A stretch of DNA of 64,000 bases, from NCBI GenBank assembly GCA_902827205.1, contig LR792634.1:558001-622000 (forward strand), in the 5' to 3' direction. The translations under genes and the position numbers were made by a program. The stretch's first letter is position 1. Every line of letters starts with the position of its first letter. Positions 39,896 to 44,661 of the stretch are shown one piece after another. The notes under the pieces were generated by a model. It was not told where the DNA came from. It searched no databases and worked only from the letters and a program-made list of their open reading frames with translations. Source of the stretch: Methanocaldococcus lauensis (GTDB taxonomy: Archaea > AGJL01 > Methanococci > Methanococcales > Methanocaldococcaceae).

Positions 39896-40037
39896 ATTAT
39901 CACCTCCAATCCTAATTATGGTTAAACAAAGATTTAAAAAGTATTTAATTTATTATATTTATATAAACTAAAATACAAATTAAAATTTATTTTTATTATT
40001 TTATATTATAAATTATTAATTTTTATAATTTTTATTA

Positions 40038-40096
40038 TCTAAAATCGTAAAGAGAAAAATATTTATATATTAAAATGGAAACTCTAAAATTGTAAA
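40038..40096 (+). promoter_or_regulatory. TATA box flanked by a repeated 14-base element
   Basis: A TATA box (tttatatat, 40062-40070) lies about 70 bases before the lipoprotein gene. It is flanked by two near-identical elements, TCTAAAATCGTAAA at 40038-40051 and TCTAAAATTGTAAA at 40083-40096, 45 bases apart. Further on is a 10-base palindrome TAGGCGCCTA near 40106-40115, unusually GC-rich. The pair could be binding sites of a regulator that spans the promoter. Confidence 0.45.
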
Positions 40097-40136
40097 TAGC
40101 GTTTTAGGCGCCTATGGGATTTATGGGGTGTAAATT

Positions 40137-42875
40137 ATGAGTAATAAAGTAATAACTACATTTTTTATATTATTTATAGGTGTAATAGTTATTATGAGTG
40201 GTTGTGTAAGTGAGTCAGAAGTAAATGAACAATCTACTGAATCTGCATCATCAACCTCAGTATCTGGGCATGAGGAGCATAACATAAAAAATATAGAGGA
40301 ATCTACGAAAAATGAAATATCTTCAATATCAGACCTTGAAAATCTCTATAAAAATACTCATTTAGGGTTTATATCAAATGATTATATAAAAGGACTATAT
40401 TTGTGGGTAGATAATGCCCAATGGAAATCTGATTCTGAAGATCTTCTTTATGATGTATATGATAGAGTATGGTTTTATAAAAATGGTTATTTGTATATGT
40501 ATGACCGTGCTGGGGATGTGTTATATTCCTACGCTGAGGAAGATGAAAAAAATCCATATCCATGGTTTGTGTTTAGAATACCATACAATAATGTAGTAGA
40601 TTTTGCTACGGGGGGAGAGTCCATAGCCATTTTAGATAGTAATAGAAATCTTCACTTAGTTCAATATGATAGTGATAATATCATGATGTGGCCTAATGAA
40701 AAAGATGAAGAAGATAAAAGTCTTTTAAATAAAAAAATCATATACTTTGGAAAAATTAAAAACGATATTTCGTGGAATGTTGGAGGAAATAACTTAGCCA
40801 CAGGGACAGATTATGATGATAACTATGCCTATTATGTAACATGGGATAAATACAAAGTTTGGATAATAGGACTAAGTGCTCATGAACTAAATGAACTTTT
40901 TGAGAATAATGGAATAAAGCCAGAACCAAAAACATTTACATTTGATTCTGAAATAAAAAATGTAGTTGTTGGAGGGCATGCAATTTATGTTCTAACTGAA
41001 AATAAATTATATATTTTTGATATTACCCAAGGGTTTGAGAACATTAAGGAAACCTCAACTACAGAAATCCCTACAAATGCTCGTCTCTATGTAGATCCAG
41101 GTTATGATAAAGATACCTTATCTATCTATAATGGTAAAAATGGGAAGATTCTATTTATAAAAAATGGTAAAATAGATGAGACAGGGGATTTAAAGTTAAA
41201 AGGATATGATTTTGTAGGATATGACTCAAAAGAGTTTAAACTCCTTGCATTTAAGGATAATAAAATTGATGTATATGATGTGTATGATATTGACTCTATG
41301 ACAACAGAATATGAAGGTAGTTTAACATTGCCTGAAAAAGTCAAAATAGGTTATGCCTTTATTGACGTAGGTACAGGTAAAGTATGGACATATTTCTGGG
41401 GAGTTGATGGTAAATACTATGCATTAGTTGGGGAGATAAATGAAAATACAGAACCCGCTATAAATGTTGAAACTACTTCAGAAATTGATAAAACCTCAAA
41501 TTATGTTTATGAAACAAATGAATATGAACAAACCAATACTTATAATGAAGACAAATCTTATGAAGAATCTGAAACACAAACCTATGAAAGTGAAAGTTCA
41601 GAGCAAAGTTTTGAAACAGAAACAAATTCAAAAAATGAAATTGAAAAAAATCCTATTGAATATGAAATTAAGGAGATTATTAATAACTTTGATATAGAAA
41701 ATACTCAAATTGAAGACCTTTGGGGAGTTAGAGTTCATCTTAAAAAAACTCCTGATTATAAAAATATTCACGATTGGCTACAAACAAGAACGTATGAGCC
41801 ATGTGGCTTACCAGGACTTTATTTAGCATATGGAAATTGTTTAATAGGAATTAGTGAAGTTGGGGAGAGTTTAAAAGTATTGGGTGAAAATAAAGAACCA
41901 ATAAATAAGTATGATGTAATAAGCAATATTTATATATTCCCAACTACTCCAAAGGATTTTACTATAGGTTTTTACTCTTCATATAATATATTTATGGCGG
42001 GCAAAGATGGAAATCTTTATCTCCTTCCATATGATTATGGGAAAAGCAGTGAATTAGAGTTAAACGATGAAAGTATATATTATACTGAATATCCTAAATA
42101 TATAACTTGGAATATAGACGCAGATGGTGTAAATTGGATTAGTTCATATAGTGGAGATAAATACTATCTCGTAGCATGGAAAGGAGACGAGTTGTATATA
42201 TTCACATATCCTGCAGAACTACTTAGGGCAGAAAATAACGAGATTCCTAAAGTAGAGCCATCAGTTATTTCGTTACCAGAGAAAATAACTGCAGTCTATA
42301 GATTACCTTATGGTAGAATGCTCATAAGAACTGATAGCGGTCTTTATCTCTATGATACAGATGGCTATTATGATTATGGACCTGGAAAATTATATACCTT
42401 ACTTAAAAATTTCCTAGGAAAAACAGTTATTGAAGAATATAATGGTGTAGATTATAATGGTAATCTTGTAATATACAATGATGATAAGTTCTACTGGATA
42501 GAGATATTTAGTAAATATGACGAAAATGACAAAAATGTTCCAATTGCTTTAGTTTATAAGTCAGACAAAACATTTCCAAATGTTGTAGCATTCTCACCAA
42601 TGTATAACACTTATGATGAGCAACTTATAATAGGATATGACGGAAAAGTAGATATCTATAATGTATCTAGAGTTACTTTATATGATGAGAATGGTAATGA
42701 AAAACTGTATCTTAATTTAACTTATGACATGACATTTAATATCCCATTTACTCCAGAATTTGTATATGGAGAAGATGAATGCTATTGTCATGTCCATAAA
42801 TATGAGCAGTATATATATGCTTGGGCTGGGAATGATTTCTATATTCTCTTTGGTCCAAAACATGGATGGTTTTAA
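40137..42875 (+). CDS. large lipoprotein with two related beta-propeller-like lobes
   Basis: A 912-residue exported protein of no family I recognise. The N-terminus is a signal sequence ending in a lipobox (MSGCVSE, Cys near 22), so it is probably lipid-anchored outside the cell. A Ser/Thr/Glu linker follows to about 65. Lobe 1 (about 70-440) and lobe 2 (about 525-910) are similar: ISWNVGGNNLATGTD and WDKYKVWIIGLSAHEL in the first correspond to ITWNIDADGVNWISS and WKGDELYIFTYPAELL in the second. The lobes are joined by an acidic Glu/Thr/Ser linker with repeated YE/SE units (about 455-515). Repeated short strands such as GNKLYIFD suggest propeller blades. Preceded by ggggtg. Confidence 0.75.
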   Translation: MSNKVITTFFILFIGVIVIMSGCVSESEVNEQSTESASSTSVSGHEEHNIKNIEESTKNEISSISDLENLYKNTHLGFISNDYIKGLYLWVDNAQWKSDSEDLLYDVYDRVWFYKNGYLYMYDRAGDVLYSYAEEDEKNPYPWFVFRIPYNNVVDFATGGESIAILDSNRNLHLVQYDSDNIMMWPNEKDEEDKSLLNKKIIYFGKIKNDISWNVGGNNLATGTDYDDNYAYYVTWDKYKVWIIGLSAHELNELFENNGIKPEPKTFTFDSEIKNVVVGGHAIYVLTENKLYIFDITQGFENIKETSTTEIPTNARLYVDPGYDKDTLSIYNGKNGKILFIKNGKIDETGDLKLKGYDFVGYDSKEFKLLAFKDNKIDVYDVYDIDSMTTEYEGSLTLPEKVKIGYAFIDVGTGKVWTYFWGVDGKYYALVGEINENTEPAINVETTSEIDKTSNYVYETNEYEQTNTYNEDKSYEESETQTYESESSEQSFETETNSKNEIEKNPIEYEIKEIINNFDIENTQIEDLWGVRVHLKKTPDYKNIHDWLQTRTYEPCGLPGLYLAYGNCLIGISEVGESLKVLGENKEPINKYDVISNIYIFPTTPKDFTIGFYSSYNIFMAGKDGNLYLLPYDYGKSSELELNDESIYYTEYPKYITWNIDADGVNWISSYSGDKYYLVAWKGDELYIFTYPAELLRAENNEIPKVEPSVISLPEKITAVYRLPYGRMLIRTDSGLYLYDTDGYYDYGPGKLYTLLKNFLGKTVIEEYNGVDYNGNLVIYNDDKFYWIEIFSKYDENDKNVPIALVYKSDKTFPNVVAFSPMYNTYDEQLIIGYDGKVDIYNVSRVTLYDENGNEKLYLNLTYDMTFNIPFTPEFVYGEDECYCHVHKYEQYIYAWAGNDFYILFGPKHGWF

Positions 42876-42948
42876 ATCCTATCTTTAATCTTTTTTATAT
42901 AAAGCTTAATTATTATTTTGGAGATTCTAAATTTATATGGGTATTTGT

Positions 42949-43770
42949 ATGAAACTAAAACTCATTAAAATAAAAGCTAAAAAATCTTTCACTCCAACCA
43001 AGATTCCGGAAGCGGATTATGTCATAAATCAATATGTTGGTTGTCAGTATAGTTGTATGTATTGCTATGCTAAATTTATGTGTAGATGGTATAAATATGG
43101 GAAATGGGGAGAGTGGATTGTTGTTAAAGAAAATCTCCCAGAACTTATTAAGAAAGAAAATGTAAAAGGAAAAGTCTATATGAGTAGTGTTAGTGATCCT
43201 TATCAACCAATTGAGAAAAAATTAGAACTTACAAGAGATATTTTAAAGAGTATGAATAAAAACATTAAATTAGGAATTTTAACCAAATCTAATTTAGTTT
43301 TAAGAAATATAGATGTTTTTAAAGAGTTTATAAATATAGAAGTAGGTTTAACAATAAATGGATTTAATAAATATATTAAAAAGAAAATAGAACCCTTCTC
43401 TCCCACAACTGAAAAAAGGATAGATGCTTTAAAAATACTTCATGAAAATGGTATTAAGAACTATGCATTTATCTCACCAATAATTCCAAATTTAGTTGAT
43501 GTTGGAGAATTAATCAAAGAAACGAAAAATTTTACAGATTTTTACTGGTTTGAGTTTTTAAACTTAAGGGCAAGCGGTAAAGAGTTTTGAAAATGGCTAA
43601 AACAAAATTATCCAGAAAGTTATGAAATACTATCTAACAAAGATAAGGTTGAGAAGTATATAAAGGAAGTTATTAAAATTATAAAAAGTAATAATATCAA
43701 AGTTAGAGGTGTTTGTATCAATCATCCAAAAATAAATAAAATAAATAACTCATTTTTTAAGATTTTTTAG
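42949..43770 (+). pseudogene. radical SAM protein (SPL-like) interrupted by an in-frame TGA
   Basis: The reading frame from the ATG at 42949 gives KIPEADYVINQYVGCQYSCMYCYAKFM, here cited as its motif GCQYSCMYCYAKF (C-x3-C-x2-C), then MSSVSDPYQPIEKK and LTKSNLVLRNID, as in the SplB-like COG1533 radical SAM group. At 43588 a TGA stops it, yet the same frame stays open for 60 more codons (KWLKQNYPESYEILSNK) to a TAG at 43770, which look like the normal family C-terminus. I read it as a nonsense mutation of an Arg/Trp-type codon. Selenocysteine is less likely because no SECIS-like GC-rich hairpin is seen in the 10 bases to, or within, the convergent gene. The ATG at 42937 is an alternative start. 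Confidence 0.75.
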
Positions 43771-43779
43771 TGTTTAGTT

Positions 43780-44532
43780 TTACAACTCCACCAACTTAAA
43801 AATTAAATCTGATTTTTTACAGTATTTTTTTAATCTTTCCCTAACTTCATAAGATTTTCCAAGAACAGGCCAAAGAATAGAATCAATATGTAGTGGAGGA
43901 ATATTAGTTTCTTTACCTATTTTTTTCCAAAATTTTATAGGATCTTCGTTAGTGAATTTTTTTGTATATTTTTCAATTCTACTATCTTTTGGTATTTCTA
44001 TTTCCATAGGGTATGGGATGAATTTATTAAACGATATCCTTGATGCGTATCCAAACATTTTAACTGTAAATACTACTGTCTTAGATTCTTTTTTTGTTTT
44101 TAACTGGTTTGCTATAAGATTCCTAAAAACATTCATATTTTTGTAATATTCTTTAATATCCTCAATATTTAGATTTTCTAAGAAAGGTTTTATCTTATCA
44201 ATTCTTTTTATTTTTATATTTAAAAGTCTTCTATTACTTTTACAATTTAATAAAAAATCCTTATATTCTTTAAAGATATTCTCTTTAATCTCTTTATTTG
44301 ACCAATAATTTGAAAATTCTTTCCACCAAAGTTCTCCAGTTGATGATAGTTGATAACTAACCAATGCATTGAGAATAACCAATTTAATAAATAGTTCATC
44401 ATCTTTAAGATTTTTTTGGAGATTTTTTAAATACAAATACTGCAAATCAACATTTTCCTCTAATTCTCTTGCAGTATCTATCCCAAGTTCTTTTAATATT
44501 GATTTTAGTTTATCTATTTTTTCTCCATTCAT
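43780..44532 (-). CDS. 8-oxoguanine DNA glycosylase/lyase, AGOG family
   Basis: A 250-residue helix-hairpin-helix glycosylase that I place in the archaeal AGOG (OGG3) family. Blocks: LVSYQLSSTGELWWKEFSNYW near 64-84 (aromatic residues that stack on the base), the catalytic lysine in KTVVFTVKMFGYASR near 150-164, and the essential aspartate in PPLHIDSILWPVLG near 220-233. It removes 8-oxoguanine from DNA. The ATG at 44532 after ggtgagttttaat gives the best start. It is convergent with the broken radical SAM gene. Confidence 0.85.
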   Translation of the reverse strand: MNGEKIDKLKSILKELGIDTARELEENVDLQYLYLKNLQKNLKDDELFIKLVILNALVSYQLSSTGELWWKEFSNYWSNKEIKENIFKEYKDFLLNCKSNRRLLNIKIKRIDKIKPFLENLNIEDIKEYYKNMNVFRNLIANQLKTKKESKTVVFTVKMFGYASRISFNKFIPYPMEIEIPKDSRIEKYTKKFTNEDPIKFWKKIGKETNIPPLHIDSILWPVLGKSYEVRERLKKYCKKSDLIFKLVEL

Positions 44533-44661
44533 ATTAAAACTCACCATTTAGGACTAATTATCAATTAAAAAATATTAATATAATTAAGCCAGATTATGTT
44601 GAAAAATCTTAAATGAGATATTTAACTTTATTTAAATCTGTATCAAATAATTGGTGATAAG

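What the first reader, a model, noticed from the sequence alone, without database searches (positions are those of the whole stretch)
42949..43770. Radical SAM gene with one in-frame TGA and an intact 60-codon tail
Only one base change separates this from a full gene. Methanocaldococcus does use TGA for selenocysteine, so readthrough must be considered; but the site is outside the Cys motifs, and no SECIS-like element is visible. A recent nonsense mutation or a sequencing error is most likely.
Basis: partly seen in the sequence, partly recalled or inferred. Interest (0 to 1): 0.5.

Follow-up and report, generated by a model that had tools for sequence, protein, structure and literature searches.

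The report
Strain-specific nonsense mutation, radical SAM gene
One copy of an accessory enzyme gene in a methane-making archaeon is cut short by a stop codon that another genome of the same species does not have, so this is most likely an ordinary recent gene break and not a hidden selenium-containing protein.

Summary
In detail: an in-frame TGA at 43588-43590 interrupts a radical SAM gene (ORF from 42949), and the frame runs on to a TAG at 43768-43770. A same-species genome (G061, locus L044) has the gene in the same place (2711 of 2829 aligned positions identical), uninterrupted, with AGA (Arg) at this codon. In 37 homologues examined the residue is Q 16, R 14, V 3, E 2, K 1, T 1; Cys 0. The genome decodes Sec (tRNA-Sec; selD with one internal TGA), but a SECIS scan that finds a hairpin in 13 of 13 selD loci finds only one poor candidate around this gene. 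Selenocysteine is not supported; a recent nonsense substitution is the best reading, with a base error in the record as the rival. The "intact" tail is only partly native: 47 codons are homologous, and the last 12 follow from a 2-base difference that puts the natural stop out of frame. Pairwise dN/dS shows no long decay. A side observation is more interesting than the finding: selD mRNAs of this genus carry a covarying 17-22-nt long-range helix beside the Sec codon.

The parts
42949..43590 (+). Truncated radical SAM ORF, 213 aa plus TGA (217 aa if the ATG at 42937 is used)
   Evidence: homologues start near this point
43042..43065 (+). CX3CX2C radical SAM cluster motif (Cys 32, 36, 39), upstream of the TGA
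   Evidence: translation; the three Cys are invariant in the four-sequence alignment
43588..43590 (+). In-frame TGA; AGA (Arg) in the same-species genome G061 and in L025, L026, L027
43591..43731 (+). Native tail beyond the TGA, 47 codons homologous to the C-terminus of relatives
43732..43770 (+). Non-native in-frame extension (12 codons plus TAG); the stop used by L044 is out of frame here through a 2-base difference in an A run
39906..43779 (.). Variable block holding a 912-aa ORF (40137-42875) and the radical SAM gene; genomes G009 and G005 keep both flanks with about 2.9 kb of other sequence between them (three other ORFs in G009)

Best explanation
This is a strain-specific nonsense mutation in a dispensable accessory radical SAM gene. 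A single base substitution turned an Arg codon into TGA in this genome. Translation should stop after residue 213 and give a protein that keeps the 4Fe-4S/SAM motif but lacks the last helices and the C-terminal strand. The event is recent relative to the split from the sister genome, because neither body nor tail shows decay beyond the TGA and the shifted natural stop. Shown: the TGA, the sense codon in the sister genome and homologues, no recognisable SECIS, the patchy occurrence of the gene. Inferred: that the truncated product is inactive or unstable, and that the change is in the organism and not only in the record.
For: The same-species locus L044 is intact in the same place and has AGA at the codon. 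Among 37 homologues the residue varies (Q 16, R 14, V 3, E 2, K 1, T 1) and is never Cys. No convincing SECIS lies in 42501-44600, + strand, while the same scan finds one in 13 of 13 selD loci. The gene is dispensable: 3 of 14 genus genomes match (four of the 14 are only 81-89% complete), and G009 and G005, which keep both flanks, hold other sequence there. The table (not complete, sequences not inspected) shows other copies that look broken: G110 1 TGA + 1 TAG, G138 in pieces with a TGA, G151 in two pieces. Pairwise dN/dS with L044 is 0.215 overall, 0.194 body, 0.239 tail (14 nonsynonymous, 14 synonymous), inside the 0.018-0.349 range of 13 neighbouring ORFs (two antisense ORFs, 0.436 and 0.334, set aside).
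Against: There are no reads and no third genome of the species, so a base error in the record is not excluded. A branch codon model puts both terminal branches (this copy and L044) at omega 0.28 against 0.044 elsewhere (lnL -5991.1 vs -6000.2); the intact copy shares that rise. Fits that separate the two copies are unstable: query alone 20 (the bound), both free 0.27 and 0.29, body only 0.41 here vs 0.11 in L044, tail only 0.001 vs 20. So they neither date the break nor show or exclude faster change here. Derived replacements are about equal: body 3 here vs 2 in L044 (3 not polarised), tail 1 vs 4 (1 not polarised).
Confidence: 0.77

Rival explanations
1. The TGA is a sequencing or assembly error and the organism's gene is intact.
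For: Single substitution against L044; no general decay; a second small difference sits in an A run at the gene's end, where indel errors are common (general knowledge).
Against: It is a substitution, not a homopolymer indel. The record is one contig of 1.48 Mb. Of 9 sense ORFs of 130 aa or more that one search lists in the matching stretch of G061, 7 have the same length in the window, the HAD-like ORF differs at its start only (171 vs 149 aa), and the radical SAM gene is the one cut short, so this stretch does not look error-ridden.
Confidence: 0.18
2. UGA is decoded as selenocysteine.
For: The genome has tRNA-Sec (72.3 bits) and a selD with one internal TGA, so Sec insertion exists here. 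A 16-nt stretch around the TGA can pair with sequence after the ancestral stop, a length reached in 3 of 395 random position pairs of the window.
Against: Arg in the same species; 0 of 37 homologues with Cys at the column. No SECIS with GAA, AAA or CAA opposite A in 42501-44600, + strand, beyond one candidate at 43225 inside the gene with one G-C pair in the upper stem, none in the lower and a mismatch; 13 of 13 positive controls found. The 16-nt pairing relies on G-U pairs: its longest Watson-Crick run is 7 nt, no more than other windows of the gene (7-12 nt), and pairing with the 140 nt after the TAG (12 nt) or with the 5' side (11 nt) is near controls.
Confidence: 0.01
3. The stop is leaky or tolerated: low-level Sec-independent UGA suppression, or the 213-aa product itself, keeps some function.
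For: Tail and body have similar dN/dS in the strain comparison; the catalytic motif is kept; PMC9622424 (passages) describes Sec-independent UGA suppression in M. maripaludis, with SECIS-independent reporter activity under 1% of wild type.
Against: The 37 homologues aligned all carry the tail (they were chosen as the best matches, so partial copies are left out). The model places the break inside a helix and removes two further helices and a strand (mean pLDDT 62, so only moderately reliable). The constraint signal may predate the mutation.
Confidence: 0.04

Closest known systems
Strain-specific nonsense pseudogenes of accessory genes in prokaryotes
   Same: One stop in an otherwise open frame, intact allele in a genome of the same species, patchy gene
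   Different: No further decay seen, apart from a natural stop put out of frame
Archaeal selenoprotein genes (for example selD/SPS of the same genome)
   Same: In-frame TGA in an organism that makes Sec
   Different: No convincing SECIS, no Cys at the column in 37 homologues, Arg in close relatives
TIGR04470 radical SAM mobile pair protein B (NCBIfam)
   Same: Best NCBIfam match, 144.1 bits over residues 8-236
   Different: Far below the curated cut-off of 410 bits, so not a member
Spore photoproduct lyase fold (PDB 4fhg)
   Same: Radical SAM fold; highest query-normalised TM (0.51) among the 50 PDB matches listed, although rank 18 by E-value
   Different: 17% identity, E 5.9e-4, with a moderate-confidence model; function not transferable

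Membership tests
Archaeal selenoprotein | Sec decoding machinery in the genome | tested here: met
   tRNA-Sec 72.3 bits, over the gathering score of 47; selD with an internal TGA. SelB, PSTK and SepSecS were not searched for.
Archaeal selenoprotein | SECIS hairpin with GAA/A motif in a UTR | tested here: not met
   None convincing in 42501-44600 on the + strand; 13 of 13 selD controls found
Archaeal selenoprotein | Cys or Sec at the aligned position in homologues | tested here: not met
   0 of 37 Cys; AGA in the same species
Archaeal selenoprotein | Selenium incorporation shown | not testable with these tools
   needs 75Se labelling or mass spectrometry
Radical SAM superfamily | PF04055 domain and CX3CX2C motif | tested here: met
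   (64.5 bits, cut-off 29.5); motif
TIGR04470 rSAM_mob_pairB | Score over the curated cut-off | tested here: not met
   144.1 vs 410 bits
Recent nonsense pseudogene | Intact allele in a close relative at the same locus | tested here: met
   L044
Recent nonsense pseudogene | Relaxed selection or decay in the broken copy | tested here: inconclusive
   Pairwise dN/dS within the range of neighbours; branch fits unstable
Recent nonsense pseudogene | Stop present in the organism itself, not only in the record | not testable with these tools
   no reads available

The most novel reading that the evidence does not exclude
The TGA is a tolerated leaky stop: Sec-independent UGA suppression in this archaeon supplies a little full-length radical SAM enzyme, or the truncated 213-aa form still works.
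Probability: 0.04. Interest if true: 0.4.

Novelty: new member of a known kind. Interest (0 to 1): 0.13.

Why it matters
It matters little beyond annotation: the gene should be recorded as interrupted in this strain and not as a candidate selenoprotein. It shows that a same-species comparison plus a SECIS scan with positive controls settles such a case quickly in a Sec-decoding archaeon. The control work turned up a conserved long-range helix in selD mRNAs, which bears on how a distant SECIS might be brought to its UGA.

Tried and rejected
Selenocysteine: rejected (homologue column, codon in the same species, SECIS scan with controls). That scan is loose: it gives 3 + strand and 15 - strand matches over the 64-kb window, none with both stems fully paired and two or more G-C pairs in the upper stem. 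Branch codon models to date the break: unstable. A SECIS pattern over the own genome gave 15 matches (its reversed control 19); one is the selD SECIS, none is near this gene, and the others look rRNA-like to me but were not checked. My first control for pairing around the TGA was faulty: its two windows that reached 16 overlapped the TGA region itself; one search replaces it. Viral contigs: 7 pattern matches, none encoding a relative. PDB by sequence: no match at E up to 1. Searches, meant as a check of the genus, did not name it. Literature: 'Methanocaldococcus lauensis' (a guess at the species) found 0 papers; the 10 papers listed show nothing on this gene (listing only).

Full report
What is there. 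The frame starting at ATG 42949 encodes a radical SAM protein (PF04055 at 1.7e-17) with CX3CX2C at residues 32-39. After 213 codons there is TGA at 43588-43590, and the frame continues for 59 sense codons to TAG at 43768-43770. The tail is homologous to relatives, so this is a broken gene and not chance.

Same-species comparison. One search covered 36 genomes of the phylum; 3 match: the window's own genome, G061 (marked same species) and G008 (same genus). One search, over 61 genomes of wider kinship, lists matches in 13, many of them distant (down to 17 bits). In G061 the locus L044 lies in the same context, with 2711 of 2829 aligned positions identical. It encodes an uninterrupted protein of 266 aa (from the upstream ATG) with AGA at the window's TGA codon. 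The window copy also has two A's fewer in the run just before the stop used by L044.

Homologue column. I aligned 37 homologues: L044, L025, L026, L027, L002, L003, L004 and the 30 loci fetched (its best matches). Weaker matches and the distant matches (L005-L024) were not used. The residues at the TGA column are Q 16, R 14, V 3, E 2, K 1, T 1, Cys 0. The codon AGA occurs in 7 of the 37, among them L044, L025, L026 and L027.

Is Sec possible? The genome has tRNA-Sec (72.3 bits) and a selD with one internal TGA. The methanogen SECIS is marked by a GAA/A kink-turn-like motif (PMC11881835, passages). A scan for GAA, AAA or CAA with an opposite A, a 3-bp upper stem and a 6-bp lower stem (one mismatch allowed) finds the hairpin in 13 of 13 selD loci of the genus. 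In window 42501-44600, + strand, it finds only one poor candidate at 43225 inside the gene. Around the TGA a 16-nt stretch can pair with sequence after the ancestral stop. 3 of 395 random position pairs of the window do as well, and the pairing leans on G-U pairs: its longest Watson-Crick run is 7 nt, against 7-12 nt in other windows of this gene. Selenocysteine is not supported.

Age and effect of the break. Pairwise counts against L044 give dN/dS 0.215 (14 nonsynonymous, 14 synonymous), body 0.194, tail 0.239. Thirteen neighbouring ORFs lie between 0.018 and 0.349 (two antisense ORFs, 0.436 and 0.334, set aside). The branch model raises omega on both sister copies together (0.28 against 0.044), and fits that separate them are unstable. 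There is thus no clear sign that this copy has decayed longer than its intact sister. The AlphaFold model (4 sequences, mean pLDDT 62, pTM 0.67) places residue 214 inside helix 211-220; helices 222-229 and 231-247 and strand 252-257 are lost. The PDB fold search gives mainly radical SAM enzymes with weak scores, so no specific function is claimed. UGA suppression without Sec is known in M. maripaludis at a low level (PMC9622424, passages), so traces of full-length protein are possible.

Setting. G009 and G005 keep both flanks: on the left to 39904 and 39905, on the right from 43780, at 92-96% identity. Between them they hold about 2.9 kb that does not match the window. In G009 this has three ORFs of 220, 272 and 428 aa, the last of which I read as phosphoglycerate-mutase-like from its sequence, without a family search. 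The gene therefore sits in a variable block, as a dispensable accessory gene would. Identity to copies on Archaeoglobaceae and Methanophagales contigs (69%) is slightly higher than to the copy of G008 in the same genus (66%), which suggests horizontal movement; the support for that grouping is weak (0.65).

Side observation, selD. In the 13 selD genes found in 14 genus genomes, sequence at or just after the stop codon (at the stop codon itself in 9 of 13, 2-23 nt later in 4), 5' of the SECIS, pairs over 17-22 nt with the coding sequence that starts 9-13 nt after the Sec UGA. Other 100-nt windows of the same genes reach at most 10-16. With the register set by the best pairing, columns UGA+13 to +28 are Watson-Crick pairs in all 13 sequences, with double-sided changes at +14, +20, +21, +23, +26 and +27; related sequences share changes, so these are not independent events. 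Outside the genus, 20 more selD matches were found, of which 17 gave loci. Two (L121, L123, both of one other genus) have the helix (20 and 18 nt), and 15 do not (7-11 nt). [quoted passage not shown] the passages I read do not report it for selenophosphate synthetase. Searches (listings) and passages of PMC2933860, PMC13188914 and PMC9622424 showed no mention. This is not a full literature search, and the helix has not been tested for function.

Verdict.

Noticed in passing
L028 (own-genome selD; CDS about 1541-1560 and 2524-2543 at the stop codon), 12 further genus loci L093-L104; L121 and L123 outside the genus: A 17-22-nt long-range helix pairs sequence at the selD stop codon/3' UTR start with coding sequence 9-13 nt after the Sec UGA: 13 of 13 genus loci, with double-sided changes at six core positions; 2 of 17 other loci of the order have it, 15 do not. 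It may bring the distant SECIS to the UGA.
   Followed up: partly
window 39906-43779: Variable block: flanks conserved in G009 and G005 while the interior differs; in G009 it has three other ORFs.
   Followed up: partly
table: G110, G138, G151, G118: Other copies of this radical SAM family look broken or partial in the search table (internal TGA/TAG, split matches, N-terminal stub), as if the gene were lost repeatedly. Sequences not inspected.
   Followed up: no
L026 3339-3794 and 5974-6798: The Methanophagales contig carries a second, shorter ORF (151 aa) of the same radical SAM family upstream of the full one.
   Followed up: no
L028 about 2560-2600: Rfam (cmscan, E up to 5) does not detect the archaeal SECIS of selD although the GAA/A hairpin is there, so an Rfam negative for archaeal SECIS says little.
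   Followed up: partly
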